Source: a virus. From it: 62,651 bases of DNA. The translations under genes were made by a program, and so were the position numbers. The DNA is taken from IMG/VR virus record IMGVR_UViG_3300044858_004015, positions 1 through 62,651 of that record. One strand, 5' to 3'. Shown piece after piece: positions 32,165 through 49,718 of this stretch; position 1 is the stretch's first letter; each line of letters begins with the position of its first letter. The notes under the pieces were generated by a model that was not told the origin of the DNA, did not search any database, and saw only the letters and a list, made by a program, of their open reading frames with translations.

Positions 32165-32189
32165 CGCGGGGTTTTTCCATCAGGCCAAA

Positions 32190-33230
32190 TTAGGCCAAAA
32201 CGTTTTGGAACCAGAAGCCGGTCGCAGGAGCGGTAACCACCGCACAAACATCATCGACCACGCTTCCCAAATGCCGACGATTGTCAGTATCGTCCTTTGA
32301 CTCAACGCTCATTTCTTCGTAGGCGAAGATCGTCAACGTCGAGAACTCTGGCCCTTCGTTTTCATTGCCAAGTTCCCCGACCTTGGACAGCATGAATACG
32401 CTGCCGTCTGGGAATACCCGAGTGCGAACCGCCGAAGCAGCGCCGCGACGGCTAGTCACCATCACAGCACGTTCGATTGAAATGTCGAAGCCATAGAGCT
32501 GGTCAGGCAATCCATACTTATGGAATTTGCCTTGCTTGCCCTTGACTTGATCCAAGGCATCAGGCGATCCCTTGATGTGATCGACGATCTCCTGGCACAA
32601 GGAAACTTTCTTGGCCGTGTTGGGGCTCATGACGATATGGAATTGGCTTGGATCGACAGCCGCCAAGGTGTCCAGTTCAATCAGTTCGCTGCCATGGAAC
32701 AGGGACCGCTTGATATCCTGCCGAGCAGTCGTCGAGGCTTCCCACGTTCCGGCATTTCCGGCGATCGAAGCAACCGCTGAAACGTGCGATGCGTCCCAGT
32801 TGGCCGCATTAGTCAGAGCTTGAACCGCCAGGCGAGTACGACTGGTCATGGCTCGCTGGGCAGCAATCGCCCCGTGAGTGCCGGAAATATCCCAGTCGGC
32901 TTGCTCCTTGGCTTTCTGGCCGAGCTTGAACGGGAATGCGTGTCGCTGGGTGCGGTAAGGCAGCCAGGCGAATTGCTCGGTCCCGTCATTATGCTGAGGA
33001 CGATCAGCGCCATCAGCCCAGACGGTTTCGTCGGTGTTGCCGCCAACCAGTCGACCGGCTTGCTCTGCGTTGATTCGCAGGTAATAGCCTTCGTCTTTTT
33101 GGACGGTCTTAAGCTGAGCGTATTGGTGAAGATCAAACTTATTCGGGTTCCGAGAGAACTCGACTTTAAGCTTGCCAGATGCAGCAAAGCTGCGGACGTA
33201 GGTGTTTGAACCGCCAGGAAGAGCAGACAT
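32190..33230 (-). CDS. Major capsid protein (HK97-fold candidate)
   Basis: At 346 residues, placed between the decoration protein and the connector, this is the capsid candidate. It opens MSALPGGSNTYVRSF, has an ADWDISGTHGAIAAQRAMTS helix with typical spine-helix spacing, a central beta region (DPSQFHIVMSPNTAKKV), and a C-terminal ISIERAVMVTSRRG segment with an STLTIFAYEEM strand, like HK97-type subunits of the Mu-related group. The first residues resemble a Pro-Gly-Gly-Xaa-Asn-Thr-Tyr word also present in the protease/scaffold protein (LPGGGNTYIRGTE), perhaps a shared binding or cleavage site. Confidence 0.8.
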   Translation of the reverse strand: MSALPGGSNTYVRSFAASGKLKVEFSRNPNKFDLHQYAQLKTVQKDEGYYLRINAEQAGRLVGGNTDETVWADGADRPQHNDGTEQFAWLPYRTQRHAFPFKLGQKAKEQADWDISGTHGAIAAQRAMTSRTRLAVQALTNAANWDASHVSAVASIAGNAGTWEASTTARQDIKRSLFHGSELIELDTLAAVDPSQFHIVMSPNTAKKVSLCQEIVDHIKGSPDALDQVKGKQGKFHKYGLPDQLYGFDISIERAVMVTSRRGAASAVRTRVFPDGSVFMLSKVGELGNENEGPEFSTLTIFAYEEMSVESKDDTDNRRHLGSVVDDVCAVVTAPATGFWFQNVLA

Positions 33231-33345
33231 ACGCAGGGTCTCCGTTGCGTGTGCCAGCTCCGTTGTTCGGTCGCCTACACTATGTTAGAACTGAAAATTT
33301 GACTTTGAAACTAAAAACTAAACTCGAAACAAAAATCCGGTCAGG

Positions 33346-33747
33346 TTACGGCATCACGCCGCGAACGATCGTACACTTGACGCGTTGACCGGCAGCGGTC
33401 GCTGAAGTGTGGGCTTCAGCCGAATAATGCTGTCCGGTAGTAGCCGCAACAGCACGCCCCTGAGCGTCAGGCTTCAGGTAGACAGGTCCACTCGTGATGG
33501 TGATCGAACCACCAGCCTCGACTTCGCAGGTGTCACCGATCCCATACGCCAGCATTTCCTGGCCAGTACGAGCCGCAAAGCGATCCGTCATGCCTGGAAT
33601 CGGAGCATCAACCGTGCCTTCTTGCGAGACGCCATAGGCGACCGTATCGGCAGCGGCCTCGGCCATCCTTAACTCGCCACTTTGTCGAACGAACCGTGAA
33701 GGCCGCACATTGGCGGAAGCGATAAAAGTCCTTGGAGCTGACTGCAT
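33346..33747 (-). CDS. Capsid decoration protein (DUF2190-like)
   Basis: The 133-residue protein is rich in Ala/Gly/Thr and beta structure: VAYGVSQEGTVDAPIPG, the VEAGGSITITSGPVYL block and the QGRAVAATTGQHYSAEA segment. Small, beta-rich proteins of this type between protease/scaffold and capsid genes trim or decorate the head, and DUF2190-like proteins have this form. The N-terminal 25 residues are basic and may be a tail that is removed. Confidence 0.65.
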   Translation of the reverse strand: MQSAPRTFIASANVRPSRFVRQSGELRMAEAAADTVAYGVSQEGTVDAPIPGMTDRFAARTGQEMLAYGIGDTCEVEAGGSITITSGPVYLKPDAQGRAVAATTGQHYSAEAHTSATAAGQRVKCTIVRGVMP

Positions 33748-33805
33748 GTTTTTTACCTACTGCAAAAACGTTGAAACGTGTGAAAAACTGTGTGCGGGGT
33801 TGGGA

Positions 33806-35410
33806 CTAGGCTACAATGCCACGTTCGCGAGCCAATTCGTCGGCCACTTCGTCGTAGCTTCGAACTTTGCCCGAGTGCATCGCTGCCGTGCATCGCTTGA
33901 CGACTTCATCGTTGAATGCTTGGGAATATCGCTCCTTCGTCGCATCCTTCGAAGGCAATTCCCCGTCAGGGATCATGCCCTTTGGCGGCGACGACTGAGC
34001 CGCATATCGCTCGATCGTCTGGCAGTGTGCATCGAACTCGTCGTCGGTCATCTCGGAACCAGCCGAGTACAAAACTCGACTCAATTCTTCGTCAAGATTC
34101 GCTTCAATGGCGGAATACTTTTGAGACATCTGCTGGAGCCGAAACGCGCGCTGTGCGTCGGTTCGCTCCTGCATCAGATTCCCAACGGCAGATCGAAGCT
34201 TTCCGGTTTCTTCGAGCAATTCCTGATGCTTGCCGATCAGGTCTTCAACGAATTCTTGTGAATATTTTTCAGCCACGACTTCTTCATCTCCTGAAATAGA
34301 ATTTCGCATCAACGCCCCACCAACCGCACCAGCCATTAACGGAGCCGCCAAGGCTGGTAGCGCGTATGGGTCTTTTTGTCCTGGAGGTTGCCCGCCAGAA
34401 GGTAGGTTCAGCGGATCGCCAGGGTTGCCTGGCTGGCTGTCCGAAATGCCAGTAGCCGGAGCCACGGACGGACTAGGCTGGCCGATCGCTCCTGGATCTT
34501 GAGGAAGACCCGCAGGCGGCTGGCCGGGGATCTGCTGCCCTGGAATACCGCCCATCTGCTGCTGACCACTCTTCATGAATCCTTCGAGCGCTGCAAGCCT
34601 TGGCTCGATCGCATTCGAGATCGCATTGACCAGTTGATTCATTTCTTCTGGAGTGATAGGCATTGAACTTCCTGCCGGTTGTGCTTGATATTTTTGATGA
34701 TCTTCAGTTCCGCGAATGTAGGTGTTTCCACCGCCTGGAAGCGCGAGCGATGGAGCCATGATTGAGTAGCGTTCAATCATAACCCCATCATCCTCGATCG
34801 CTCCGTAATAAGCAGGTGGGAGGTCTAATCGCGGTGCCTCAGCACCTAAACATGCTATGGGATCAAAAAAATTTCTACTCGAATCTGCATATCGCATCAG
34901 CTCGACTGATCGCCTTGGCTTTTGGTCCACAACTCCGATGTATCTCGGCTTATGAAATTCATCGCCAAAGATTGAATATTTCTGCTGCTGATCGCCAATC
35001 ATTCCAATGCGAAAGCAGCCGGAATAGCCGACGATCTGTGGTTCGCCAGCACTTGGATCATTGCTTGTGTGCTTGTCGATTAGTGCGGGGTACAATCCAA
35101 CTTCGCGACTTCGGCGATTCAGATTTTTGCAGATCGCGCTGAGTTCATTGGGACCGACAACAAATGGTCCGCTGCGAGTGTTGATTGTGTGTTCGGTGAA
35201 ATGGCATACCGATGGAAGATGTCGATAACCAGCAAATTTCTGCTGAGCCTGATAGCGTTCTGTACCTGGATTCGCCATGTCCCAAGCATTCCATACAGCC
35301 TGATTCCTTTGCGAAGCATTGGGAATCGCGGCCATAGACGAACGATGCGCGCGAATACAGAAGTCTTCGCAGCTCTCTCCGTTCATTGGCGTTGGGACGA
35401 TAGGTATCAC
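33806..35410 (-). CDS. Head maturation protease / scaffold candidate
   Basis: The start is GTG at 35410, overlapping the upstream stop. Residues 50-240 form a beta-rich domain with LYPALIDKHTSNDP, then GYSGCFRIGMIG, resembling phage prohead proteases of the Mu gpI group, where a His after the strand (IDKH) is catalytic. A Pro/Gly/Gln-rich linker follows (residues 270-360), then a helical C-terminus (EFVEDLIGKHQELLEETGKL and FRLQQMSQKYSAIEANL) as in scaffold proteins. This fused protease-scaffold order just before the decoration and capsid genes is standard. The catalytic assignment is inference. Confidence 0.65.
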   Translation of the reverse strand: MIPIVPTPMNGESCEDFCIRAHRSSMAAIPNASQRNQAVWNAWDMANPGTERYQAQQKFAGYRHLPSVCHFTEHTINTRSGPFVVGPNELSAICKNLNRRSREVGLYPALIDKHTSNDPSAGEPQIVGYSGCFRIGMIGDQQQKYSIFGDEFHKPRYIGVVDQKPRRSVELMRYADSSRNFFDPIACLGAEAPRLDLPPAYYGAIEDDGVMIERYSIMAPSLALPGGGNTYIRGTEDHQKYQAQPAGSSMPITPEEMNQLVNAISNAIEPRLAALEGFMKSGQQQMGGIPGQQIPGQPPAGLPQDPGAIGQPSPSVAPATGISDSQPGNPGDPLNLPSGGQPPGQKDPYALPALAAPLMAGAVGGALMRNSISGDEEVVAEKYSQEFVEDLIGKHQELLEETGKLRSAVGNLMQERTDAQRAFRLQQMSQKYSAIEANLDEELSRVLYSAGSEMTDDEFDAHCQTIERYAAQSSPPKGMIPDGELPSKDATKERYSQAFNDEVVKRCTAAMHSGKVRSYDEVADELARERGIVA

Positions 35411-35583
35411 GGCTTTTCTGTCTCCGACTGGCTTGTTTCAACTAAGACAATCCTGCCGTCTTGAACTGTCAGCTTTAGCGAGAAAACGCCAAACGCCTTG
35501 GCCTTTTTGGCTAGACACTCGCTCAGCTTGTCTCGAAGAGTTTTACAGGCAGTGTCGAACTGTTGATCAATAGTTGCGTTCAT
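35407..35583 (-). CDS. Small hypothetical protein, 58 aa
   Basis: This short frame starts ATG at 35583 and ends inside the GTG start of the protease gene (GTGA overlap), so translation is coupled. The product has an amphipathic helix (FDTACKTLRDKLSECLAKKAK) followed by a beta hairpin (FGVFSLKLTVQDGRIVLVE). No family recognised. It may be a small head-assembly factor. Confidence 0.65.
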   Translation of the reverse strand: MNATIDQQFDTACKTLRDKLSECLAKKAKAFGVFSLKLTVQDGRIVLVETSQSETEKP

Positions 35584-35628
35584 GCGTTCTAAAATTGCCG
35601 ATTTTTGAAAAAACAGAAAGGGGAAAAA

Positions 35629-37209
35629 CTAGCTTAGTGAATATCTAGGATTGCTAATCCAATTCATCCAAGCACGAACAGAAAACGGAACTGGGTCAAA
35701 TTCATCGCTACTCGAGCGCGAATCGTCGAAACTTGATTCGGCTTCGGCCCAATGATTCTCTAGCGACTGGCGGAATCCCGGCCCGAGCATGTCGATCGCT
35801 CGATCCATCACTTCGGGAGAATCGATTTTTGGCTCCTGCTTAAGACCAGTACGGAAAGCGTCTAGCAATGCCTCTTCCGGTCCCCATTTGCCCATGGTTA
35901 AGTGCGGATAGTGCCGAAGAGCTAGATCGACGTATTCGTCGAAACCCTTGATACTATCGCCGTCTTGAGCCCGCTTGGTCTGCTGAACAAAACTTCCAAG
36001 CGACTGGCCTTTGGCCTTCATTAAACCATGGATTCCGCGAATCCCCTCGTTCCATTCCTGGGCCTCAGAAACCATAGTCTTAAAAGCTTCTGGGACCATC
36101 TGCTCAAGTGCGACCTGCGCTTCGTAGTTGTCATCGCCGATCTGATCGTGAATCGCCTTCATCATTCGAGCCCGCAACTGCGGAGAAAACTCAGGCTTTG
36201 GCGCTGGTGGCCTTGGTGGCTCGGCTGGAGCCGGCTGCTGCTCTTGCGACGACGGGCTGACAGTGCCCCCCGTGTTATCCTGAGCATTTTCTTGGCTTTT
36301 CGACTGACCGTCAGACATTGGGCTGACACTGTCAGCGGGCTGACTGACACTGTCAGCGGACTGACTTTGGCGGCTTGGAGTCAGCCCCATTTTCCGTTCG
36401 ACTACACTACGAAAATCAGGGTTTTCTAGCATCCTCTTGCGGTCGAATCGCGTAGCGCTTTGGAACTGCCTGAATGCCGACTCTTCATCGTCAGAAAACG
36501 CTGGAGTCCCACGATTTTGAGATCCAAGCTTGTCGCGAATCTTTTCGGGATCGAAAAACCGGCTTCCAGAATCAAGCCGCTCTGCCAGGAATCGAGGGAT
36601 CATTCCATTGGCATTCACAAAATCAGAGATCCTTGCTCCGTTTTGCTCCCCGTGCTTGTGGTCGAGATCATTGATTCTCGCAAGCGTCGCGCGAACGGCA
36701 TTCTTATCGACCTGAGACCAGGCGTATTCTTTATCCTGCTCAGTCTGCGCCTGGTCGACTCTTGCAAGGTGGCTTGCCAGTTCTTTGCCAAGACTCTGGA
36801 GGGTCGACTTGGTGTTTTGATCTAGGACGGATAAGTGTAGGGCGTGACCGCGCTGGACCGTGTCTGGAAGAGCTGCGACCTCGCGCCGGCGAGTGCTTCG
36901 GAATTGACCACCAGGGGAAGGACGTCCAGAAGCTTGCGGAAATGGCGACTGCTGGCCTGGCGGTCGGACTTGTTGAGCCTGGATCGACGTCGAGCTTCCT
37001 GATTGCCCGCCAGGTTGCTCAGACGATCGAAACTGGCCGCCTTCCGGCCGTCCGGCCGTATGTCTCGGGTGATCCGATTCGCTCCACTGGTATCGGTGGA
37101 CGTAAAACGGAATGAGATCGCTGACGAGCGACAAGAAATCGCCTGGCTTGTTTTGTTGCATTGAAGGTTCTCCGTCTTCGAGGCTATCGAAAACGCGAAA
37201 AACTTTCAA
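35629..37209 (-). CDS. Internal virion-type protein with HPR...GQF linker, 526 aa
   Basis: The protein carries the linker SDHPRHTAGRPEGGQFRSS near residue 45, the same HPR...GQF word found three times in the giant protein. Next come Gln/Ser/Pro-rich stretches, a helical domain (residues 115-260, TLQSLGKELASHLARVDQ), a second low-complexity linker with two SADSVS / PADSVS units (coded by repeated TGACACTGTCA palindromes), and a C-terminal helical domain from residue 325 to 526. It is probably packed in the head with the giant protein. A start at the second Met (residue 17) is possible. Function not recognised. Confidence 0.6.
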   Translation of the reverse strand: MKVFRVFDSLEDGEPSMQQNKPGDFLSLVSDLIPFYVHRYQWSESDHPRHTAGRPEGGQFRSSEQPGGQSGSSTSIQAQQVRPPGQQSPFPQASGRPSPGGQFRSTRRREVAALPDTVQRGHALHLSVLDQNTKSTLQSLGKELASHLARVDQAQTEQDKEYAWSQVDKNAVRATLARINDLDHKHGEQNGARISDFVNANGMIPRFLAERLDSGSRFFDPEKIRDKLGSQNRGTPAFSDDEESAFRQFQSATRFDRKRMLENPDFRSVVERKMGLTPSRQSQSADSVSQPADSVSPMSDGQSKSQENAQDNTGGTVSPSSQEQQPAPAEPPRPPAPKPEFSPQLRARMMKAIHDQIGDDNYEAQVALEQMVPEAFKTMVSEAQEWNEGIRGIHGLMKAKGQSLGSFVQQTKRAQDGDSIKGFDEYVDLALRHYPHLTMGKWGPEEALLDAFRTGLKQEPKIDSPEVMDRAIDMLGPGFRQSLENHWAEAESSFDDSRSSSDEFDPVPFSVRAWMNWISNPRYSLS

Positions 37210-37520
37210 ACTGCATCTGCTTTCTCAGCCAGCAAAAGATTCAGCCTGGCCCGCCGCGAAGCTAGATCCTCTTCCTGTCCTGAAATCGTCCCTTTCAGGA
37301 TATCCGTAGCTATCTTGTCTAATTCTCTCCGACGATTCAGATCCGCCTTTGCTTGTCGAATCAATGCCATCGTCGCCCACTTCGTAAAATTGTGATTGTC
37401 GGAAGCAAAAAAACCCTTTAGGACATTGCGCCAGACTACGTCGGGGACACGACCAATCTGGCGGCATTTTGTCTTTCCGGTTCGCTTGCGTCCGGTTTTG
37501 TGCTTTGTAAAACGCTTCAT
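37206..37520 (-). CDS. Basic helical protein, 104 aa
   Basis: The protein starts with a basic arm (MKRFTKHKTGRKRTGKTKCR) and continues as charged helices (KADLNRRRELDKIATDILKG and SRRARLNLLLAEKADAV). It lies between the giant gene and the internal virion protein and overlaps the latter by 4 bp. It may be a DNA-condensing or head-internal protein; no family recognised. Confidence 0.55.
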   Translation of the reverse strand: MKRFTKHKTGRKRTGKTKCRQIGRVPDVVWRNVLKGFFASDNHNFTKWATMALIRQAKADLNRRRELDKIATDILKGTISGQEEDLASRRARLNLLLAEKADAV

Positions 37521-37559
37521 GCTCTATTGCTCCAATGTCGTATCAACTTGGGCTTGCTG

Positions 37560-40500
37560 TTACGAGAAGGCTCCCGCCCTACCTTGCGACGATTTTTCAT
37601 TTACTTCTTTCAACCAATTCTCAGCGTCAAGAATGGCTGTTTTCAGCCTCTCCCCGCTTTTTGAATGCCAATTGCGGATCTTCATATCGGTTGACGCTGG
37701 AATAGTTTCGTCTTTGGCCTTCATGAAATTCCTAAACTTATGATCGTCAGCGTATGGGCTTTTTGCTGTTCTGCCGCCAGCAGCATCAAGACCTAAATGC
37801 GTGTTCAATCTTCTGACTATGTCTATTCCGCGCTTTTTAATTTCGTCTATGCGACTATCTGAATAGCCATGATCTCGCTTTCTGAGGCTACGGATTATCT
37901 CGGATACAGCACCCCAAGAGCTTCCACTGACCACTTTCCCGTCAGGGGCTGTACTCATTTTCTCGGCGATCCTGTGACCCTCTCGGAGTAAATCCCTGTA
38001 CTCTTCAATTGGATTTTGGCCGGAGGCTCTTTTAGCTGCCTCGGCCTCCAGTATCCTGGCGTGCTTCCGTAGGCGATCGACCTCGCCCTCTTGCCATTTT
38101 TGACTATACTCGGACGCGCCTTCTTTTTTCAACGATGCCAATTTTTGCTCTGCTTGTGCAAGCTTTAGAAGTGCGGTTCCGAGCGTCCTTACTTTGCTGC
38201 CCGCTTCTTTGGTTAGCCCTAAAAGCCTGATGGCAGATTCAACGCTGGCTACCTTCAGCCCTTCGCCTGGAATACTTACACTGAACTGGTGGACTATTTG
38301 GCGGCCAGTATGCTCGTTTGTTTCTGCCCTCGACCAGTCTGATCGCTTGACTTCTGATTCGCCGTCTTCGCTGATTTCCCATTGCCACTGCCAAGTGTAA
38401 GAGACGATAGATGCACCGGTTGGGCCAGTAATCGGCTTGACGAATACACCCCCTCCAGTCTTATCTCGCTTGGCTCCCTGCTGGATCGCGTCAGACTTGC
38501 TGGCCGCCGTAGCTTTAGGCTTGGCCTCAGCTTGCTTAGCTTTGTTGTCGATCCTGTCTTTAGGGATGAACTGCCCTCCATCGCTTTTGCCTGCTGATGC
38601 CCTTGGATGTTCGGACTCATCCCAGTTAAATGCCAGTTGTGATTTTCCGGCATATCGAAACATTTCTCCAGAAAGATCGCAATTCAGCCCCCAATACTTC
38701 ACCAGCTTAGCCGCATGATCGCGGATCGAAGAATACTTGATATGCTTCTTCACTTCAGGAAATCTCAGCGACAAAGGTTTCAGGATAGACTTCAAGTAGT
38801 CGTCATGGTCATATTCGGAAACAAAGTCGGCGGCTTCTGCTACGCTCAAGCCGGCTTGCATTGCTGAAATAAACGTGTGCGAGTCTTCTGATCCGGCTTT
38901 ATGTAGAGATTCCGCAGCTTTTGCTAGAAGTAGTTTTTCTTTGCTGTCAAGGTCTTGCCCGCGACTCCTGCGTTTCTCAAGTTGAGCCAATAAAGACCCC
39001 GCGTTATTGGCTGCGATGTGAGGCGGATCAAGCAATTCACTTTCGATCCCTGCCTGCTGAAATATCCTTCCAAGCCTAGATCGATCCATGGCCTGGTCGT
39101 CTTGGTAAATTCCCCAGGTAGTATCATTTTTCTTGACAGTTCCAAAATCGAAGAACTTCAATTGCCCTTGGCCATCCGTTCCAAATTGCAATTCGTCGTT
39201 GAAGGCATATCCGGCATCGTGAAGGCTCTTGATTAAATCTGCGGCTTGCCTGGCCTGTTCTGGAGTGTACTTGTCCAAAACGTTCAGCTTCTCTTGAATT
39301 GTGAAAACGCGATCGCCATGCTCGACTACCGATTGATTCGGCAGCCCTTTAACGCCAGCTCGCTTTAGGTTTTGGTAGGCGTCGAACTGCTGCTTAGCCG
39401 CTTTCCTGGCATTTTCAGGTGTTTGGTGCCCTGGCCCTCCAACTGCATGATATGGCACTGTCGTTGAGCTTTTGATAACATTCCCGTCCAGCGAGTCCCA
39501 GACTACAGAGTCATTACCCTTCCCGATGTACTTCGCACCGCCAGAGATGACGCGATCAATGGAAGCGTTCCCGCTGGAGCCATGAGGTGCTAGATACCGG
39601 ATGTCGCCGGTTAGATCGGCACGCATGTGCTGTAAGGATTCTTTCGGAACTTTAGCCGTCATGCCCCACTGGTTTGATACTAACGCATGGGATTCATCGA
39701 GCTTCGATATCTGCATTACGCTTGGATCATTACCGCGATGTGGGACCGCAGTAAATGAATGCCCTACTTCGGCGAACTGCCCTAATTCATCCCGAGGGTG
39801 TTTGGATTCGTCCCATGTAGCGCTATATCGATCAACGTCTACTTCTCTGGTTGGCTTGCTGTTTCCGGCTGCCACCATCTTCAATGCGACAAATCTCAGC
39901 GACAAAGGTTTCAGGATAGATTCCAGATCCTGGAGAACTGGAATAGCGTCATTAGTCCCAGAAAAACCTGCTAGCCTTCTTAATGCTTCTACCGCTACCG
40001 GCATAGAAGGGAATTCTTTTTGAATCTTCTTGGGTATCAACATCTCGGCAGTTATGCCAACCTGATGATCAAAATCCTTTTTTATGTATTCTTGTATCTC
40101 GCTTTCCGAGTATCCTCCCCGCTGGATTTCGGTCTTGATTTCATGATCGATATAGCGTTTCTTTGCCCATCGTCCTACAGCCTCAATCTGGTCGTTATTT
40201 AGCGTCTGAAGGAATGGGATGATCCTTTTTTTGACGTCATAGCCAAACCTGCCAGGCTGTTCACCAGTCCAGAAGACTTTCCCAATTGGGCCGCTTCGTA
40301 ATTGATCCCAAGTCTCTTTTTCTTTGGTCCGCTCTATGTGATCCTTAATTTCCTCCAGGCTTCGCTGCCTGACCGCCCTGAGCTTCGATTCCTGATCCGC
40401 CTTGACCGCTTTCATTTCGCCGTCAAATTGCTTTGGATTGGCCGTTTTCTTCTGTTGGCCGCTGAACAACCCATGCACTGGCATGAGCGATCCGCCTTTA

Positions 40501-43500
40501 TAGAACTTACCGTCAACATCAGATACCTCACCGCCAGGCTTGGCTCTTGGTTGCTCGACGTATCCTTCAGGTAAGTCCTTAGCCTTGGGGGTAGGCTTTT
40601 CCATGTTATGCGTAATCGATTCTAGCCAGGATCTTACCTTGGGCAGATTTTGATCAGGCGCGACACCGATGAAATTTCCGTCCATGGTATGGGCCTGTAC
40701 GCCATAGTTAGCCATTTCGGCACGCTTCCAACTATTGACGCGGCCTATGTGGAGCTTCTTGCCGCGCTTCTTAGCTTCTTTCATTAGTCTTGCGTGGTCA
40801 TAGTTGACACCCGATTTTTGCAGCTCGCTATCAGTCGGTCGAAGAGGATTGCCATCGATCGGATTGAAACCAAGCTTCCAAGCAGTGGAACCACCAATAA
40901 ATAAAACATCAAAATCGTCCCATGGAATTTGGTCAGTGTTTTTCTCGATGCCATCCTGGGCGACCCAGGCCACCGGAAACCCTCGATCGCGAATCTCTTT
41001 TAACCATGGCTTGCTGCGCTTAACAGTTTGTCGCCAGTCGCCGACAACATCCGGCGCGACCACAAACTTTACCTTTGCTTTCGATTCTGGATCTTTGGCT
41101 ACCTTATCGAGAAGCTTGCGAAACTTATCTTCGTCAAATGGAGCGCTGCCAGTGAATTCACTGTAAACACCGTTGTCGATCGCTATATGGCTGTAATCGG
41201 TAATATGCCCAACGTATTGCGGTGTATTGGGAGTAATCAATAAGCCGATGCCAGGATTTTTCCTGGCCTCATTACGCACTGGCTCACTACTGTGGCCAGT
41301 TAAAAAGCTTGTCGGATGATCTCCTACGACCTTATGGCGACGGCTAGACCATTCATCATGCGCGCTGCCTAATGCAGCGTGTTTAGGCGCAAACTGGCCT
41401 GGAAGCTTTCCATCATGCTTTTCCGTTTCACGAGGATGCTTGGATTCATCCCAGTCAAACATCAATTGAGACTTTCCAGCGTACCTAAACAACTCCCCCA
41501 GGCGCTCAGTGCTTAGCCCCCAATATTGAATCAGCTCAGCCGCGCGATCTCGGATTGACCCTGAACGCCCAAACTGCATTACCCGATCTTCAGGCGTTAC
41601 GCCATCGTCGAACATTAGCATTTGATCAGGATCGCCCTTGGTATCGAACATAGAAAGCTGCTTACCCTTAGTCGGAGCAACATCGAGCTTCGCTTTGCCT
41701 CTTGGAACGTTTGCTACGTCGCCGAATAGCCCCATTTGATCGTTTGGCTTTGCGTCGGAGTTAGTTCGGGTGTCGAAGGCGATGCCGGAAGAGGGCTGAT
41801 CTGATTGTGTTTCTCGCAGATCGCTAGACTTGACTTCAACGTTCCCTGACTTTCCTGGTCCATTATTGACCTGTTTCCAAAATTCTCCGACGTCAAGACC
41901 TGTTGAATTTTTGATGATTGACTTATGTTCATCACCGTACTTTGACAAAAATTCGGCCTTAGTGCTTCTCTTGGCGAATGTTACCAAGTTGCTATTTTTC
42001 TTGGGTAGCATTTCCTTTAGTTTCATGCGGTGTTCAAACTTGATTCGCCTGGGATGATTTTCGGACATGCTCTCAAAATCAAATGGACTGGCATGGATCA
42101 TCTCTGACATGTCCGAGTCAATTGGTTTTATTCCTACGAGATTACCCAAACCTCTCTTCTTCGCCCTAGCTTTAGCAACTTCGGATTGTGATATTGGCCT
42201 GTAAACTACTCCATTGTCAAACTTAAATGCGACGTAAGGATTGTGCGGATTTCCGTGTTCATCACCGCTTGAGTATTCTTTCCATTTTCCAGGATGCTTA
42301 CTGGCAAAATCCCTCAACGATGGCGACACTAGACTTAAATTGATCGTTGACGCTGAAGATGATGTCTCTTGGCCTGTGTCAGATTTCGGAGTATCTGACT
42401 TGTCGGCATTCTCTGGACTTGAAGAAGCATGCTGATTGCTTTTCTTTGGACTGCCTTTAGGAATCGCGATTCCAGCACTATCGAAACCGGATTCGTCAGA
42501 ATATGGACCGCCTCCAGCGTAGTCGCCGCGTTCTTTCAGTATGCTTCCGAACATGCCAATTTCAGCATCCAGCGAACGATGCATATCGTCTCGCTGGTCT
42601 TTAGAAATTTCTCCGCGCTGAAGCTTTCTGTTGTAACTGTTCTTGATTGAGTTCGCGTAGCTTATCGCGCGATGCAAACTGCGACTTCTCGCATCTTTAG
42701 GATTGCCAGTTACTTCGTTGAAATTGTCGGCAGACTCTTGCCAGCTCTTTTCGTCTTCGCTTAGATTTTCGGATTCTTCTTTATTTGACTGCTTAGCCGT
42801 AGGGGAGTTGGCTTTCGACACGTCAACGCTCTGCCGTAGTCGCTCGGCAGCCTGGCGGATCTCGACCGGCTTAGGAGTATCAATCCCATGCTGCTCCCAC
42901 ATTTGCCGACGTAGATCTTCAATGTCATTTACGCTAAGACCCTGAGAGACGTCCATTTTGCTTAGCCTGGCCTTCAGGTCGTCTTGCGGTGAAAGCTTCT
43001 GGCTTGCTGCTTTTGAATCGGACTGCGATCGCTCTTGGAACGCTTTACCAACAGCCGAGCCAAATTCCTTGTATCCGGAAAACTGCTTTCGAAACTTCTC
43101 TGGCATGTTAGCCCATGCTGTTTGGCCTTGCTGCTCAGCCTGAGCGCCGGTCTGGACGTGCCCGGCTTTGTCGATGATCCCCAGCGCGTGCTGGATAGCG
43201 TTATCCCGGTCAGTGGATTCGCCGCCAAGACTAGCAGCCGATGTCGGTTGGGGCGGCTTGCTGCCAGGTTTACCAGCTAACTTCAGTGCTTCTTCATTGG
43301 CCTTTCGGTGCTGGTTGTCTGTGTATTTCGTGAAACCAGCGCCGTGCATTGCTGATTGAGCCATGCCATCGGCCTTCTTCGTCGCTTCCGCAATTTTTTC
43401 AGCACGTCGCTGATACGCTTTTGGTTCAGGATCGTCAGCAAATTCGGGATGTGGCCCGTCCGCATCCATAACCAATGAATAAATTCCACTAGTGTGATAA

Positions 43501-46500
43501 TCAACCGGCTTCATGTGCGATCCAGTTTGATGATCGACCGCACCGAGCTTTCGCAGGACTTCGCGAATTGAGTTATTTTCTTCAGGTGTAAACGGCTCCA
43601 TTCCCGGCGGAAGAATGCTAACGCCCTTATCCTTGGTAGTATTGCGACGAACTTTTACGCCAGGAACCACTTCATTCAGAACGTCTTTTAGGTGTTGCTG
43701 TTCATCAGCGGTCATTTGCCGCGAAGATTTTGCGCGCGGCGTTTCTTTGTCCATTCGCTTAACAAAATCCTGGCGGGACTCGCCTTCACGTTGAGACCAT
43801 TTATCTGACTTCGCCGGTTCGACTGCCAGGGAAGCTTGATCATTGGACTTTGGCTGATCGATCGCCTTGATTTCGTCATGCCCTACCTCCTCGGTGGAGC
43901 CGTCATCGAATTTGACAGTGTGATCTGTGCCAATGATGTCGCCGCTTGCAGGCCCAACAATGGTGCCGTGCTTACCTTCCCACTCAACACGATCGCCCTC
44001 CTTGTGCGGAGATGGCCGGTTGATATTCCTGGCGCGTGCATCAGCCGCATCCTCACCGACTTTAGGCTGAGCAAATGTTGGCTGCGGTTTAGGTTTGCCT
44101 AGTTCTGCATCACCGCCATCTGAGGCTAGTTCCTTATCAAGCTCGCTCTGGATCTGATCAATCCTCTCTTTGGCATATCGCTTGCCTTCGACTGCCGTTG
44201 CATTGTCGAAAATGTTTTGCATTGTCATTTTCTGCTTATCGAGCTTCTCGACTCGCTTACGCTTCTCGGGATCTTCGATATCGCTTCGATCAACAATGGC
44301 TTGCGTGTTTACTTTGCCACTCTTGAATTTAGCCAGCGCAGTTGCAAGATAGGCTGGATCGCTTGGTACTGGGCTGTTATTCCAGTATGCCATAAACCGT
44401 TGTTGATCTTCCGGCGATAGCTCGGAAATGCCCTTAATGGCTTTCTCCCGAGTGGCTTTCGAATGTTCATCAAAATGCTTGAATATTTCTTGATTTCTCT
44501 TGTCTATGTCTTTGATTCTCTGCTCAGGTGTGGGCTGTAGCTCGGCAATCTGGTCGGAAATCAAAGGTGCCGCGTCCCTTTCAAGCTTTAGCCGTCGCTT
44601 CGATGCCGCCAGTCTTCGATTGTTTATTTCGCGTTCAACTGGTTCATCTGCAAACTTAAAATTGTTTCCCCGTAGCTGATCGGGATCTATAGCTAGGCCC
44701 GGCGGATTGCCACTTGGTTCGCTATCTGATTGCGGAAGCTTTTTGCTCGCTCTCTCTTCAAGGATTTCTGTAGAAGATTCGTTGATCTCTTCCGCCAGGT
44801 CAGGTCGTTGCTTAATTAGCCAGTTTTCAAAATTGCCAGCTCGATTCTCTGGAACCTCAGAAAGCAATCGATAAACGTCTTGCTTGCGAATCTTCGACGG
44901 ATGATCAGCGACGATCTTGCTAAAATTCTCATTGAATAAACGAGATTCTTCGGCAGAGTTTATCCCATCCTCTTTAGCTTGAAGCTCTCGATTACCTCGC
45001 TTGATCGCACCGGGAGCCATGGCTTTGATCGAAGCTTCGTCGACATCCTTCAGATCGCTTTGCTGGATCGGCTGACCGCCTGGCTCTCCAGGTTCTCTAA
45101 TCGTCAATCGTTTCGATTGTTTTTGATCTTCACCCCCAAAAGCTTCGCTCAGCTTTTGACCGGCAAACTTGCCGGTCTTCATTTCGCCATCTTTGCCGAT
45201 GTAGACCGGGTGCCCACCGTGCTTGCCGCCATCAGCACCGCTTTCACTTCCGATCGTGATCCATCGGCCACCATCGAGATCATCGAAAGACATTTGGCCC
45301 GGTGAAGACTTGGGTGACTTGCGAGCGTACTGCTCAAGATGTGGACCGAATCCCCAGAAGGCCATCAACTCCTTCATCGCAGCGATTCGAGAGAATTTTA
45401 CCTTCTCAGCCGATCCGTACTTTTCCTGGCGGAATGCTGCGAAGATCGCATCGAATGCGGGTGCCATCGCTTTAGCCTCTTCAGCATTTGGCCAGAGTGG
45501 ATGATCGCCGCCGAGACCCGATAGGTAGGTGTTTTGCCGTCCATCCTCTTCGAGCTTATGCTTGACGTGACGCTCAAATGTACGGGCAAACACTTCGCGA
45601 CCAGATGCCCAGTAGTCTTGGGCCTTGGCATGACTCATTGTCCCATTGCGAACTTCTTGCTGGAGAACTGTCCGCAATCGGTCTCGATATGGCTTACAGG
45701 CTTCCTTCCAGGAGTTGTAGGCTTTCCTGATGTCCGACCTTGATTTTTCTCGCATCGAAAAGCCTTTGTTTGGCTTGGCGTTATGCGGAGCGTCAAATGA
45801 TCTTCCAGTAGAATCATCAACGATTTCATGAGTGAATTCGCTATTTTCCGACATATAGCTAGTGTCTTTGAGGCTGGTCTTAAAATCCGCCAGCATGTGA
45901 TCGAAAGCATGCCCCCACTCGTGAGCTAGCGCCCCAACGCCACTCGCTCTGGTTAGATTGATAACCTTACTTCCAGGTTCGTAGTGTGCCGAAGCATTGC
46001 CTTTACCTCGAGCGCCGATCGCCAAACCGAGTTTACCGCCAAGGGAGAAGTCTTTCGGGTGTAAGCCAACAACGTCGGCCAGGTCTGTTATGGCCTCTAC
46101 GACTTTGCCTGCATGGTGCTTTCGTTCGTCGTCGGTAACCGAATTGCCCCACTGAACCCCACGAATCTGGAGTTCGTCGACCATGTGCTTAACGGCCTTA
46201 TTGGGGTCTGCCACGATCTTTGATACATCACGACCGCCCTCGCGCTTGGCATAGCTGACGTAGGCTTCAGACGGATCAAAACGACGCACTTTCTTTTTCT
46301 CAAGGCCGAAAACGTCAGTCATCGACTGCCCTTCGATCAAGTCCTGAGCGTGTCGCGTCAGATTACCCCAATATGCCCGCTTGGCCTCTATACTGCTCTT
46401 GGCGGCAGCGTCTAAGGACGTTCCGTATTTGCGCTCGACTTGCTTTACGAATTCGCCAAATCGGCCACCTACGCTTGTTTTGTTTCTGGAATATGGTGAA

Positions 46501-48209
46501 AGGTTGTTCGTAAAATCGATTAAGTCATTTGCTGTCTGGTTATATCTATCAGATACCGGAACCGTTGCATTTGGATCTGAAATTTTTTGCTCACGAAGTT
46601 TCTTTATTTTATCGGTTGCAAGTGCTTTCAGTTCGCTCATTGCACTCATTGATTCGACATCGCTGTACTTGCCGACAAGCTCTTCAGCTTTCGCCTTGAG
46701 ATCCCGATATGCTTCGAGATATTCCTTGCGATTCTTTTCGGGTGTTCCGCTGCGAGTCCCAGGCTTGGGAGGAAATGCCTTAATCGCAAAGTGCATACAC
46801 AAGCTTAAAAGCGGCTTCTCCTGCGCTTGTGCGACAAAATTCGTCGGCTCCAGCTTTAGCAGACTATCCCTGGTCACAAGCTTATCAGCGTTACCGTCCT
46901 TTTCAGCCTGCTCCAGCCCCTTCCAGGCGTTTACTTTGTGCCGCGCAGATCCCTTCAAGTCTTCCCCGGCATTGCCGACTTCAGAAGCTCTAGCGTAGAT
47001 GTAGTCTTCATCGAGCTTCTTTTGGGCAGCCTTGGCCGCTTCGCGCGGAGTACCGCCAGAGTTGATTGTCTCGCCGAATAGCGATGCCGCCGACTTCGGT
47101 TCAGGCGCGGCGGCTGGAGCGATCGGCGATTTCGGCTCGCTCGCTGGCTTTTCCACTGGCTTTTCCACTGGCTTTTCGACCGGCTTAGCGGCTTGCTTCT
47201 TACGGCTTACCATTTGCCATTTGCCAGGCGAATGCTGGAAAATGCCGTACTCTCTCCCGTCAATGCCCTCCATGCCCTTAGCGATCCGAGATTGTACGAA
47301 TTCGCTGGCTAACCCAGCGTGCATTGTGTCGTAAGTTCCATCAGATCCATCGCCGAGCTGATCGGCAGATACTCGGGCGATCCCGTCGCTTGGCGGTTGA
47401 TCCGGCTGCTTTGGTTCGGCCTTTGGTGGCTCAGGCTGACTTGGCTTACTTTCCGGTTCGCTTGGTCCATACCCTGGCGGCGTCACGTCGGTAACCGTAG
47501 CGCCGAGATTTTTCGCGTCGTGGGCCTTGGCCATGCCCATTAGCTTATCGTAGTGAGCTTTGAACTCTGCCTTAGTTCCTTTCCAACCTGGATTTATTGG
47601 GGGGTATCCAGTTAGATCGACGTCATCATCTGAATTGGATGCCGATGGAGATGCTTCGGGCTCGTCAGTTTTTGGCTGGACCTCGTTCTCTTCGTAATCC
47701 AACGGAGTTGGGAACCAATCGTGAAAAACTTTTGTTACTAATCGCTCCTCCCTTGGATCAAGCGTTTTTTGTGCCAATCGAACCTGCTCATGCAATTCGC
47801 GATAGGTCGAGTCGTATTCCTCCGAGTCTCGCTTGCTTTCTAATTCCATGCCCTTTTTGCGGATTTCAGCCAAAAGATCGTTGATGGGCCGAGCAACCAC
47901 TGTTTTTGCTTCTGGCTTTTGATTGGCTCCAGGTTTCGGCCGACTCACATCCGGATTGCCGCGACTTCCAAACGCTTCATCCAATGTCTTCCCAGCAAAC
48001 CTACCGGTCAGCATTTTTCCATCGCCAGAAATTTTGACCGGATGACCGCCATGTTTCTTGCCGTCCGCGCCGGGCTCGCCGCCAATCGTGATCCACTTGG
48101 CATTACCGTCATCCCCAAATAACTCAGGCGACTTGCTCTTTTGCGCACGCCGAGCCATGTAGCGATCTAAAACGCCGTAGCCAGCGATCAATTCTGCTAT
48201 ATTCATCAA
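37560..48209 (-). CDS. Giant polyvalent protein, 3549 aa, with zincin, TGT/DpdA-like and kinase-like domains
   Basis: The gene follows the portal without a gap; the start is TTG at 48209 or ATG at 48206. Domains in order: a repeat unit GADGKKHGGHPVKISGDG (about 40-85); a polyvalent-type zincin with LAHEWGH (His763) preceded by GLAIGARGKGNASAHYEP; a second GGKHGGHP unit (about 980-1020); a KOW-like unit GDRVEWEGKHGTIVGP; a TGT/DpdA-like domain (about 2315-2535: IDNGVYSEF, VVAPDVVGDW, PVAWVAQDG, LFIGGSTAWKLG, HIGRVNSWKR); and a kinase-like domain (about 2880-3050: IGKGNDSVVW, LHDAGYAFND, FFDFGT). Linkers of the DESKHPR...GQF type recur three times. Tandem EKPV units lie near 345. Long multi-domain proteins of this kind are known as polyvalent proteins, injected with phage DNA to act on the host. 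The exact activities are inferred. Confidence 0.85.
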   Translation of the reverse strand: MMNIAELIAGYGVLDRYMARRAQKSKSPELFGDDGNAKWITIGGEPGADGKKHGGHPVKISGDGKMLTGRFAGKTLDEAFGSRGNPDVSRPKPGANQKPEAKTVVARPINDLLAEIRKKGMELESKRDSEEYDSTYRELHEQVRLAQKTLDPREERLVTKVFHDWFPTPLDYEENEVQPKTDEPEASPSASNSDDDVDLTGYPPINPGWKGTKAEFKAHYDKLMGMAKAHDAKNLGATVTDVTPPGYGPSEPESKPSQPEPPKAEPKQPDQPPSDGIARVSADQLGDGSDGTYDTMHAGLASEFVQSRIAKGMEGIDGREYGIFQHSPGKWQMVSRKKQAAKPVEKPVEKPVEKPASEPKSPIAPAAAPEPKSAASLFGETINSGGTPREAAKAAQKKLDEDYIYARASEVGNAGEDLKGSARHKVNAWKGLEQAEKDGNADKLVTRDSLLKLEPTNFVAQAQEKPLLSLCMHFAIKAFPPKPGTRSGTPEKNRKEYLEAYRDLKAKAEELVGKYSDVESMSAMSELKALATDKIKKLREQKISDPNATVPVSDRYNQTANDLIDFTNNLSPYSRNKTSVGGRFGEFVKQVERKYGTSLDAAAKSSIEAKRAYWGNLTRHAQDLIEGQSMTDVFGLEKKKVRRFDPSEAYVSYAKREGGRDVSKIVADPNKAVKHMVDELQIRGVQWGNSVTDDERKHHAGKVVEAITDLADVVGLHPKDFSLGGKLGLAIGARGKGNASAHYEPGSKVINLTRASGVGALAHEWGHAFDHMLADFKTSLKDTSYMSENSEFTHEIVDDSTGRSFDAPHNAKPNKGFSMREKSRSDIRKAYNSWKEACKPYRDRLRTVLQQEVRNGTMSHAKAQDYWASGREVFARTFERHVKHKLEEDGRQNTYLSGLGGDHPLWPNAEEAKAMAPAFDAIFAAFRQEKYGSAEKVKFSRIAAMKELMAFWGFGPHLEQYARKSPKSSPGQMSFDDLDGGRWITIGSESGADGGKHGGHPVYIGKDGEMKTGKFAGQKLSEAFGGEDQKQSKRLTIREPGEPGGQPIQQSDLKDVDEASIKAMAPGAIKRGNRELQAKEDGINSAEESRLFNENFSKIVADHPSKIRKQDVYRLLSEVPENRAGNFENWLIKQRPDLAEEINESSTEILEERASKKLPQSDSEPSGNPPGLAIDPDQLRGNNFKFADEPVEREINNRRLAASKRRLKLERDAAPLISDQIAELQPTPEQRIKDIDKRNQEIFKHFDEHSKATREKAIKGISELSPEDQQRFMAYWNNSPVPSDPAYLATALAKFKSGKVNTQAIVDRSDIEDPEKRKRVEKLDKQKMTMQNIFDNATAVEGKRYAKERIDQIQSELDKELASDGGDAELGKPKPQPTFAQPKVGEDAADARARNINRPSPHKEGDRVEWEGKHGTIVGPASGDIIGTDHTVKFDDGSTEEVGHDEIKAIDQPKSNDQASLAVEPAKSDKWSQREGESRQDFVKRMDKETPRAKSSRQMTADEQQHLKDVLNEVVPGVKVRRNTTKDKGVSILPPGMEPFTPEENNSIREVLRKLGAVDHQTGSHMKPVDYHTSGIYSLVMDADGPHPEFADDPEPKAYQRRAEKIAEATKKADGMAQSAMHGAGFTKYTDNQHRKANEEALKLAGKPGSKPPQPTSAASLGGESTDRDNAIQHALGIIDKAGHVQTGAQAEQQGQTAWANMPEKFRKQFSGYKEFGSAVGKAFQERSQSDSKAASQKLSPQDDLKARLSKMDVSQGLSVNDIEDLRRQMWEQHGIDTPKPVEIRQAAERLRQSVDVSKANSPTAKQSNKEESENLSEDEKSWQESADNFNEVTGNPKDARSRSLHRAISYANSIKNSYNRKLQRGEISKDQRDDMHRSLDAEIGMFGSILKERGDYAGGGPYSDESGFDSAGIAIPKGSPKKSNQHASSSPENADKSDTPKSDTGQETSSSASTINLSLVSPSLRDFASKHPGKWKEYSSGDEHGNPHNPYVAFKFDNGVVYRPISQSEVAKARAKKRGLGNLVGIKPIDSDMSEMIHASPFDFESMSENHPRRIKFEHRMKLKEMLPKKNSNLVTFAKRSTKAEFLSKYGDEHKSIIKNSTGLDVGEFWKQVNNGPGKSGNVEVKSSDLRETQSDQPSSGIAFDTRTNSDAKPNDQMGLFGDVANVPRGKAKLDVAPTKGKQLSMFDTKGDPDQMLMFDDGVTPEDRVMQFGRSGSIRDRAAELIQYWGLSTERLGELFRYAGKSQLMFDWDESKHPRETEKHDGKLPGQFAPKHAALGSAHDEWSSRRHKVVGDHPTSFLTGHSSEPVRNEARKNPGIGLLITPNTPQYVGHITDYSHIAIDNGVYSEFTGSAPFDEDKFRKLLDKVAKDPESKAKVKFVVAPDVVGDWRQTVKRSKPWLKEIRDRGFPVAWVAQDGIEKNTDQIPWDDFDVLFIGGSTAWKLGFNPIDGNPLRPTDSELQKSGVNYDHARLMKEAKKRGKKLHIGRVNSWKRAEMANYGVQAHTMDGNFIGVAPDQNLPKVRSWLESITHNMEKPTPKAKDLPEGYVEQPRAKPGGEVSDVDGKFYKGGSLMPVHGLFSGQQKKTANPKQFDGEMKAVKADQESKLRAVRQRSLEEIKDHIERTKEKETWDQLRSGPIGKVFWTGEQPGRFGYDVKKRIIPFLQTLNNDQIEAVGRWAKKRYIDHEIKTEIQRGGYSESEIQEYIKKDFDHQVGITAEMLIPKKIQKEFPSMPVAVEALRRLAGFSGTNDAIPVLQDLESILKPLSLRFVALKMVAAGNSKPTREVDVDRYSATWDESKHPRDELGQFAEVGHSFTAVPHRGNDPSVMQISKLDESHALVSNQWGMTAKVPKESLQHMRADLTGDIRYLAPHGSSGNASIDRVISGGAKYIGKGNDSVVWDSLDGNVIKSSTTVPYHAVGGPGHQTPENARKAAKQQFDAYQNLKRAGVKGLPNQSVVEHGDRVFTIQEKLNVLDKYTPEQARQAADLIKSLHDAGYAFNDELQFGTDGQGQLKFFDFGTVKKNDTTWGIYQDDQAMDRSRLGRIFQQAGIESELLDPPHIAANNAGSLLAQLEKRRSRGQDLDSKEKLLLAKAAESLHKAGSEDSHTFISAMQAGLSVAEAADFVSEYDHDDYLKSILKPLSLRFPEVKKHIKYSSIRDHAAKLVKYWGLNCDLSGEMFRYAGKSQLAFNWDESEHPRASAGKSDGGQFIPKDRIDNKAKQAEAKPKATAASKSDAIQQGAKRDKTGGGVFVKPITGPTGASIVSYTWQWQWEISEDGESEVKRSDWSRAETNEHTGRQIVHQFSVSIPGEGLKVASVESAIRLLGLTKEAGSKVRTLGTALLKLAQAEQKLASLKKEGASEYSQKWQEGEVDRLRKHARILEAEAAKRASGQNPIEEYRDLLREGHRIAEKMSTAPDGKVVSGSSWGAVSEIIRSLRKRDHGYSDSRIDEIKKRGIDIVRRLNTHLGLDAAGGRTAKSPYADDHKFRNFMKAKDETIPASTDMKIRNWHSKSGERLKTAILDAENWLKEVNEKSSQGRAGAFS

Positions 48210-49718
48210 CTATGCCCCTTGGCTTGTAACGCCGGTTTCTTTGTAATAATTCTCTAAAATCTGATCCTTCAGACTCTTTTCTTTCTTAGCCTGATCGATC
48301 GCCAAGGCCACCTGCGGATTGAAAAGCTGCTGCTCTTCATCGTTGGCCATAGAAATGCCGATAACGTCAGCAACGTCCGATGCCTTGATTCGCATCCCCA
48401 TATCCCAAGCTTGCTTCAGACCCTGCATTTTCTTTTGGGCGTCTTCGCTTTCCGTATCAATCTTGAATCGAAGATAGTACATTGCCGAGCGAGGAAAATT
48501 CCAAAGCTGAATCGGCCTTAAAAAGTCCTCTGTAAGCGTCTCCTCTTGATTGATCGCGTCGTAGGTGACGATATCGGCAAACGTCGCCATGTGAGCATCG
48601 GCAACGCCAGATCCCAATCCAGTCGCATCGGCTTCGCTGGTTAGAGTCTGCCCGAGGATGTATCGCTTGATCTTGTGGCCGAAGAATTCTTTGATTACGG
48701 TTAGCATCGAATCGACGCCAGCCATGCCTGGTTCGATATGCTCGACGCCAAACATGTCGGCTTGCTCGCCCGCGTAGACTGGGCAGAGAACGACAGATCG
48801 ACCGCCAGAGATGTATTCCTGGGCGGCCTTGCGAACCCGAGCTTCGGCAAGCTGATTACCTGCCGGAAATCGCCAGATCTCAACACCCATCGCCGACCGG
48901 TCGAGGTATTCCAATACCCGCTGGAGACATTCCGTCATGGCGTACCATGTCCAGTAGATGCGATCGCGGACGCCTACCCCGTGGATTCGACCCATCATTC
49001 GCGGCTCGTGAAACGGAGCGTCTTCGATCATGTGCTTATGCACCACAATCGTTTTTCGCTCTTGCGGGTCAAGCCAGTAGACCATCCCGTGATCGGTGTA
49101 TTGAATATGCTCTCGCTGCTCGTCGTGTCGCAGGCGGCTTTCGGTTCTGTAATGGGCACCAACGCGGATTCCGACCTGACCGGCCTGGTAGGTGTGCGTT
49201 CCATCGTCATACCGAAAAACGAGCTTGTCGCCATGTCTTGGCTCGACGCGCCGAGCGAAGATCCGCTTCTTGCCGTCGATCCAGTCTGTGCCGTAGTTGA
49301 TCGCCGCCGCGTACTTTCCATACCAGACGTTTTCCTGTAAAAATCGCCGCATTTCAGTAAATCGGCTGGTTCTCTTCAGGATTTTCGTTAGTTCTTCGGC
49401 CAGGATCTTTTGATCGTAAGACTGCGAATTTTCGGGCTCGATATGCCAGTTCAGGAGAGCGACAGACCGCTGGCGGCCTTCAAGCGATTCCATGATGCCG
49501 CAGTCCTTGCGCATTCGTTCGGCATTAGCCATCGAATTTAGCGTGGCTTCGTCGAGCGTCAGATAAGACTGGGACGTTATCCCAGTGCGACCTAGCGAAG
49601 TATAGGTGTGCGGAACGATATCTTGGCCGAAAAACGGCGGTGCCCCAGGGAATGCCCTTGCTGGGTCATAAGCACTCACGTCGAAGATTCGCGCTGGAAT
49701 CTGAGAATTATCGGTCAC
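48210..49718 (-). CDS. Portal protein, Mu gp29-like (DUF935)
   Basis: The 502-residue protein has the DUF935 form. Its middle has a conserved core (YGKYAAAINYGTDW, YWTWYAMTECLQRVLEYLDR). The typical C-terminal segment is KRYILGQTLTSEADATGLGS, followed by AHMATFADIVTYDA and the closing helices. Mu gp29-type portals form the dodecameric ring for DNA entry and exit. The giant protein is encoded directly downstream, where Mu-type phages place gp30/MuF. Confidence 0.88.
   Translation of the reverse strand: MTDNSQIPARIFDVSAYDPARAFPGAPPFFGQDIVPHTYTSLGRTGITSQSYLTLDEATLNSMANAERMRKDCGIMESLEGRQRSVALLNWHIEPENSQSYDQKILAEELTKILKRTSRFTEMRRFLQENVWYGKYAAAINYGTDWIDGKKRIFARRVEPRHGDKLVFRYDDGTHTYQAGQVGIRVGAHYRTESRLRHDEQREHIQYTDHGMVYWLDPQERKTIVVHKHMIEDAPFHEPRMMGRIHGVGVRDRIYWTWYAMTECLQRVLEYLDRSAMGVEIWRFPAGNQLAEARVRKAAQEYISGGRSVVLCPVYAGEQADMFGVEHIEPGMAGVDSMLTVIKEFFGHKIKRYILGQTLTSEADATGLGSGVADAHMATFADIVTYDAINQEETLTEDFLRPIQLWNFPRSAMYYLRFKIDTESEDAQKKMQGLKQAWDMGMRIKASDVADVIGISMANDEEQQLFNPQVALAIDQAKKEKSLKDQILENYYKETGVTSQGA

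What the first reader, a model, noticed from the sequence alone, without database searches (positions are those of the whole stretch)
37560..48209. 3549-residue polyvalent protein coded directly after the portal
Seen: one unbroken 10.6-kb gene, 17% of the genome, with a zincin, a TGT/DpdA-like domain, a kinase-like domain, a KOW-like unit and repeated linkers. Known: polyvalent proteins of phages and conjugative elements join many domains and are injected to act on host defence. Inference: the particle carries a multi-tool that can cut proteins, change bases and phosphorylate targets at entry. I know no description of this domain set in one phage protein. The position after a Mu gp29-like portal, where gp30/MuF is usual, agrees with a head-internal location.
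Basis: partly seen in the sequence, partly recalled or inferred. Interest (0 to 1): 0.92.

Follow-up and report, generated by a model that had tools for sequence, protein, structure and literature searches.

The report
Giant phage effector protein with joints
Right behind its portal gene, a phage of planctomycete bacteria encodes a 3,549-residue multi-enzyme protein of the known 'polyvalent' kind, whose modules meet at a conserved tag that, in many unrelated phages, links the portal to probably injected effectors and so may mark cargo for the capsid.

Summary
The gene is real: one uninterrupted minus-strand frame, 37560-48209, abutting a Mu-type portal gene. A zincin with LPD1 is certain. The kinase-like domain is confirmed by fold. 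The 'TGT/DpdA' domain is a TIM barrel with moderate similarity to DpdA. The KOW unit was not confirmed. It is a polyvalent protein in the sense of Iyer 2017, so the kind is known.

What is less ordinary is the linkers. The five repeated units carry two boundary tags. One, W-D-E-x-K-H-P-R-x(2-8)-G-[QKER]-F, recurs in about 100 IMG/VR stretches. There it typically lies between a portal (up to five Pfam portal families) and an effector domain (ART, zeta toxin, PBECR, Acb1, LPD3). I found no published description of it.

A sister prophage in a Pirellulales genome (portal 83%, capsid 82% identical) has only an 1,110-aa protein in the same slot (LPD3, tag, zincin-LPD1, InPase). About 2,400 residues, including the TIM-barrel and kinase modules, were therefore gained or lost there, with breakpoints at or near the tags.

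Best reading: a tag-jointed, capsid-loaded and injected cargo chain. Packaging, injection, cleavage at the tags and every enzymatic activity are inferred, not shown.

The parts
37560..48209 (-). giant polyvalent protein gene (3,549 codons; likely start ATG at 48206)
48210..49718 (-). Mu gp29-type portal protein, directly upstream in the same frame
   Evidence: (PF06074 2.2e-36)
47934..48209 (-). boundary unit U1 (aa 1-92): WITIGG...KHGGHPV type
   Evidence: family in other viruses
45330..47084 (-). core module aa 376-960: zincin (HEWGH at 45909-45923) plus LPD1 (45423-45632)
   Evidence: 77% identity to sister prophage L271
45087..45434 (-). boundary unit U2 (aa 926-1041): helix + W-tag of type 1
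41541..41831 (-). cassette aa 2127-2223 with three Q-x-x-[LM]-F motifs (sliding-clamp-binding-like), conserved in L137 and L271
41370..41579 (-). boundary unit U3 (aa 2211-2280): YWGL/RYA helix + WDESKHPR...GQF tag
   Evidence: tag HMM 1e-5
40608..41318 (-). TGT/DpdA-like TIM-barrel domain (aa 2298-2534)
40149..40586 (-). module aa 2542-2687, shared with L019, where it follows the tag in a portal fusion
39756..39944 (-). boundary unit U4 (aa 2756-2818): LKPLSLRF + WDESKHPR...GQF tag
   Evidence: tag HMM 6e-9
39030..39719 (-). kinase-like domain (aa 2831-3060)
38550..38819 (-). boundary unit U5 (aa 3131-3220): LKPLSLRF + YWGL/RYA helix + WDESEHPR...GQF tag
   Evidence: tag HMM 1e-5
37563..38549 (-). 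C-terminal module (aa 3221-3549), no recognised family
35629..37209 (-). second tag-bearing gene; WSESDHPR...GGQF at about 37030-37086
   Evidence: the L271 homologue (38% identical) also carries a tag
32190..33230 (-). major capsid protein (end of the syntenic head block)
   Evidence: phrog_1005 6e-6; 82% to L271

Best explanation
The gene encodes a polyvalent effector chain of a phage of planctomycetes, made with the head proteins and most likely loaded into the procapsid near the portal and injected with the DNA. Its modules are strung together by boundary units. Each unit is a short helix followed by a W-tag (WITIGG..KHGGHP or WDESKHPR..GQF), and most precede a cargo module. The tag is a portable joint used by many unrelated phages between portal and effector; I infer that it is a capsid-loading and/or processing signal, comparable in role to the T4 capsid-targeting sequence. 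Because cargo is bounded by joints, modules are gained and lost there. Once inside the cell, the zincin would release the modules or cut targets, and the TIM-barrel and kinase-like domains would modify host or phage molecules. Shown: gene, domains by sequence or fold, tag conservation and placement, module gain or loss between sister phages. Inferred: packaging, injection, cleavage, all activities.
For: Zincin + LPD1; kinase fold; TIM barrel. The tag DNA pattern, which covers only WDE-x-KHPR, hits 102 IMG/VR stretches; in 105 non-redundant tags the later G is 105/105 and F 102/105, though the pattern did not ask for them. Before the tag in the same frame: up to 24 of 49 sequences match portal families (PF06381 12, PF05136 5, PF06074 4, PF04860 2, PF21919 1). 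After the tag: LPD3, zeta toxin, ARTs, Acb1, PBECR, topoisomerase IB. A tag HMM built without window sequences finds U3-U5 (1e-5 to 6e-9) while shuffled sequences stay at <=9.4 bits. In 31 portal-related loci all 19 tags lie in the portal gene or 1-5 genes downstream, none elsewhere. In 397 planctomycete-order genomes the only exact tag lies on a contig with a related portal. In isolated phages the tag lies in the portal-type gene or just after the portal. One weak plasmid hit. The sister prophage L271 differs by whole modules.
Against: No virion proteomics was found for this virus, and no tag has a tested function. The tag count is based on a search for its first eight residues, and related prophages contribute several of the portal hits (e.g. 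PF06381). The last boundary unit is followed by a module without known fold, and U1/U2 are of the other tag type, so treating both types as one joint is an inference. The Amycolatopsis plasmid hit shows a tag-like element outside an annotated phage. The DpdA assignment is moderate and the kinase-like relatives lack DFG (DTG instead).
Confidence: 0.68

Rival explanations
1. Polyvalent effector as above, but the tags are only inert linkers that spread because recombination happens in them; they carry no loading or processing signal.
For: Tags sit at module breakpoints and are followed by G/S/A/K-rich, probably disordered stretches.
Against: An inert linker would not keep W, H-P-R, G and F at fixed places across unrelated portals and hosts; G and F are conserved although not selected by the search.
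Confidence: 0.2
2. The tags are cleavage sites: the zincin or a head protease cuts there, so the chain enters the particle as several separate proteins. A sub-case of the best explanation in which processing, not targeting, is the function.
For: P1 DdrB is processed before packaging and zincins are proposed autoproteases (Iyer 2017). Portal-tag-effector fusions would need cutting to free the effector.
Against: Many tagged proteins carry the tag only 8-60 residues from the start of the frame, where a cut frees nothing but a leader; N4 virion RNA polymerase is packaged uncut.
Confidence: 0.35
3. It is a structural head or scaffold protein whose enzyme-like domains are degenerate relics.
For: Position inside the head-gene block; kinase-like relatives have lost the DFG motif.
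Against: HEXXH is intact and the core is 77% identical to the sister phage; the kinase-like domain here keeps DFG; size and content vary wildly in the same slot, unlike a structural part.
Confidence: 0.1
4. Portal and giant protein are one product made by readthrough of the single TAG codon, so the effector is tethered to the portal.
For: Same frame, one stop codon apart; portal fusions exist in relatives (L012, L014, L016, L019).
Against: The sister L271 also has a stop, TAA, followed by NTG-ATG, and many relatives use another frame; simple translational coupling explains it.
Confidence: 0.05

Closest known systems
Polyvalent proteins of phages and conjugative elements (Iyer et al. 2017, PMC5512222)
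   Same: Several unrelated enzymatic domains in one chain, zincin plus LPD domain, truncated kinase domains, head-gene context, portal/MuF fusions
   Different: TGT/DpdA-like TIM barrel, KHPR and WITIGG boundary tags and planctomycete hosts are not mentioned there
Sister prophage L271 (G145:C3, Pirellulales genome) and L137 (Pirellulaceae)
   Same: Same slot, tag type 1, zincin-LPD1 core, QxxLF cassette; for L271 also in-frame junction and synteny
   Different: 1,110 and 1,766 aa; LPD3 and (L271) InPase instead of TIM-barrel and kinase modules
Streptomyces phage Gilgamesh gp48
   Same: Giant protein (record 31978-45852, about 4,620 aa) near the portal-MuF fusion gene with a KHPR-like tag at its start
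   Different: Different host and portal; tag match weak; domain content not examined
Viral contigs L176 and L178
   Same: The same TIM barrel inside giant polyvalent proteins; L176 also has the kinase-like domain, L178 two KHPR-like tags
   Different: Apparent ParB, methylase-helicase or ART domains; no zincin-LPD1 match to the window protein
DpdA/DpdA2 and Cap10 (TGT-superfamily TIM barrels)
   Same: TIM barrel; order of the motifs DNG/DSG, PDVVGD/DxIGD, GG
   Different: Much shorter, no Pfam TGT match, no 7-deazaguanine pathway genes among the window genes tested
T4 capsid-targeting sequence (analogy from my own knowledge)
   Same: A short peptide that sends internal proteins into the procapsid
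   Different: No sequence relation claimed; KHPR tags are also found inside chains and in portal fusions

Membership tests
Polyvalent protein (Iyer 2017) | Two or more domains with disparate activities in one polypeptide | tested here: met
   zincin, TIM barrel, kinase fold
Polyvalent protein (Iyer 2017) | Zincin-like peptidase and LPD domains | tested here: met
   LPD1 48 bits against cut-off 27; intact HEWGH; homologues annotated LPD5-containing in phages
[quoted passage not shown]
   portal adjacent, TerL at 54113-55690
Polyvalent protein (Iyer 2017) | Carried in the particle and delivered at entry | not testable with these tools
   needs virion proteomics
MuF polymorphic toxin | MuF domain (PF04233) | tested here: not met
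   no hit in the giant protein or the head-block genes tested
TGT/DpdA transglycosylase | TIM-barrel fold | tested here: met
   pLDDT 81.5, pTM 0.81; Foldseek hits mostly TIM barrels, incl. Cap10
TGT/DpdA transglycosylase | Profile similarity to known members | tested here: inconclusive
   hhalign to phage 9g DpdA + Sonali gp87: E=3.8e-4, probability 36%; E. coli Tgt and control negative
TGT/DpdA transglycosylase | Pfam TGT family match | tested here: not met
   none of 22 members
Polyvalent-type protein kinase | Kinase fold | tested here: met
   top 50 PDB hits are structures with a kinase or kinase-like domain
Polyvalent-type protein kinase | Conserved Gln in the last N-lobe strand, shortened C-lobe | tested here: inconclusive
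   Q in the window protein (FTIQEKL) but not in most relatives
KHPR-tag boundary element (defined here) | W-D-E-x-K-H-P-R-x(2-8)-G-[QKER]-F at the start of a cargo module in a portal-linked protein | tested here: met
   U3, U4, U5 by an independent HMM; the K and the spacing vary in U3/U5

The most novel reading that the evidence does not exclude
The KHPR tag is a general, undescribed capsid-loading (or loading-and-cleavage) signal used by phages of many hosts and several portal types to carry injected effectors, and the giant protein is a chain of such tagged cargoes. The tag would then predict injected proteins across viral sequence data.
Probability: 0.4. Interest if true: 0.85.

Novelty: new variant of a known kind. 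Interest (0 to 1): 0.6.

Why it matters
Which phage proteins travel in the capsid, and what selects them, is known for a few model phages. A short sequence tag that sits between portals and effector domains in unrelated phages would make that question testable by sequence search and by a simple mutation, and would give a list of candidate anti-defence effectors. The sister-phage comparison shows that cargo can change size several-fold in one slot while the head genes stay the same.

Tried and rejected
Direct tblastn of units U1 and U5 in phage records: nothing significant. Pfam, NCBIfam and PDB sequence searches for the TIM-barrel and kinase domains: negative; folds decided. A KHVGGTPV DNA pattern for tag type 1 was too strict (0 hits); a gapped pattern gave 8 contigs. 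Stop-codon readthrough of the portal considered and judged unlikely. MuF identity rejected. KOW unit not supported. Assembly chimera: GC is even across the gene and both ends of the sister-phage cassette occur inside it, so unlikely but not excluded. Text search for the tag in open papers: one unrelated hit only.

Full report
OBSERVATION. The frame 37560-48209 is open on the minus strand for 3,549 codons. The portal gene 48210-49718 ends in TAG, and TTG-ATG follows at once in the same frame, so the likely start is ATG 48206. The record is a virus contig of 62,651 bases with TerL, primase, an exonuclease V/helicase-type gene, a RecT-like protein and an integrase. Portal relatives point to Planctomycetota: 63% in a Pirellulaceae MAG, 58% in a Planctomycetaceae MAG, 83% in a genome of the same order.

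DOMAINS. Aa 670-930: zincin with HEWGH and LPD1, related to proteins of Stx and other phages. Aa 2298-2534: related to ~200-aa phage proteins called DpdA-like; an AlphaFold model with 22 sequences is a confident TIM barrel that matches TIM barrels in general, among them Cap10, a transglycosylase-family enzyme of type IV CBASS. Profile comparison with phage 9g DpdA and Sonali gp87 gives E=3.8e-4 at 36% probability, with motifs DNG, PDVVGD and GG aligned; controls are negative. I therefore call it DpdA-like, not a proven transglycosylase. Aa 2831-3060: kinase-like; eight sequences aligned, model pLDDT 71, top 50 PDB hits are structures with a kinase or kinase-like domain. The rest has no recognised family.

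LINKERS. Five units recur: U1/U2 and U3/U5 are homologous pairs and U4/U5 share LKPLSLRF. U3-U5 end in W-D-E-S-[KE]-H-P-R-x(n)-G-Q-F; the next tag-bearing gene, 35629-37209, has the same element. A DNA pattern for WDE-x-KHPR hits 102 stretches in IMG/VR; from pattern degeneracy I estimate about one by chance. In 105 non-redundant tags the downstream G is invariant and F nearly so, though not part of the pattern. What precedes the tag in the same frame is a portal in up to 24 of 49 cases; what follows includes LPD3, zeta toxin, ADP-ribosyltransferases, Acb1, PBECR nucleases and topoisomerase IB. Where the tag is N-terminal, upstream genes include portal, MuF and terminase. In isolated phages the tag lies in the portal of Xanthomonas PhiXhv-5, the large gene after the terminase in Pseudomonas Orimi01, a HI1409-family (portal-type) gene of a Helicobacter prophage, and the gene at or just after the portal in Gordonia Boopy and Streptomyces Gilgamesh. 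The plasmid collection, three times larger, gives one weak hit. An HMM of IMG/VR tags finds U3-U5 and little in shuffled sequence. In 31 portal-related loci all 19 detected tags are in the portal gene or 1-5 genes downstream, none elsewhere. In 397 genomes of the host order the single exact hit shares a contig with a related portal. Tag type 1 (WITIGG...H-x-GG-x-P) also occurs in large proteins of eight other viral contigs, once together with KHPR.

EVOLUTION. Sister prophage L271 keeps the head block (portal 83%, capsid 82%, intervening genes 38-77% identical), but its protein after the portal is 1,110 aa: LPD3, tag type 1, a QxxLF cassette, zincin-LPD1 (77% over 585 aa), InPase. In the window protein the tag-cassette unit is split by about 1,090 aa, and three tag-bounded stretches (TIM barrel, kinase, C-terminal) are added. 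L137 has 1,766 aa. L019 places one of the modules in a portal fusion behind a KHPR tag and the zincin core in the next gene. L176 joins the TIM barrel and a kinase-like domain in another giant protein. So the slot is a modular cargo site.

QxxLF MOTIFS. Three Q-x-x-[LM]-F motifs lie in aa 2158-2200 (0.4 expected, p=0.005 by shuffling) and recur in several relatives. They resemble sliding-clamp-binding motifs (my own knowledge); a tether to the replication clamp is possible but untested.

MECHANISM. Inference: made late with the head, held near the portal, loaded by way of tags, injected, then released or active as modules. The zincin precedent is P1 DdrB processing (Iyer 2017). Tag as loading signal and tag as cleavage site cannot be separated from sequence.

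NOVELTY. The protein is a new, very large variant of a described kind. The TIM barrel is not mentioned in the main text of the founding paper. For the tag, text searches in 5.39 million open papers found no description; most subscription papers and preprints could not be searched.

Noticed in passing
window 41541-41831 (-); also L137, L003, L011, L019, L020: Clusters of Q-x-x-[LM]-F motifs (QMGLF, QLSMF, QMLMF), resembling beta-clamp-binding peptides, conserved across these portal-linked giant proteins.
   Followed up: partly
L127 (Streptomyces phage Gilgamesh gp48): Hypothetical protein of about 4,620 aa near a portal-MuF fusion gene with a KHPR-like tag at its start; contents not examined.
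   Followed up: no
L132 and L278 (Arthrobacter phage Sonali gp81, gp86-88): A short DpdA-like TIM-barrel gene sits near a ParB-like nuclease, a gene annotated queuine tRNA-ribosyltransferase and a QueC-like gene, suggesting that the short family has a separate role beside DpdA.
   Followed up: no
L178: A 967-aa frame beginning with a KHPR-like tag, then an ART-like stretch, a second tag-like element, the TIM barrel and the start of a methylase-helicase: tags bounding different cargo.
   Followed up: partly
L129 (Amycolatopsis plasmid, about 8001-8057): Tag-like WNEADHPRGADGRF at the start of a 190-aa protein on a plasmid with TraM-like and relaxase genes; the only hit outside annotated phages.
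   Followed up: no
window 51208-52745 (-): Nucleoside deoxyribosyltransferase/MazG-like and metallophosphoesterase genes between portal and terminase.
   Followed up: no
L147 (Acetobacteraceae MAG): Related portal and zincin-LPD1 core in a proteobacterial bin; the contig may be mis-binned or show a host jump.
   Followed up: no
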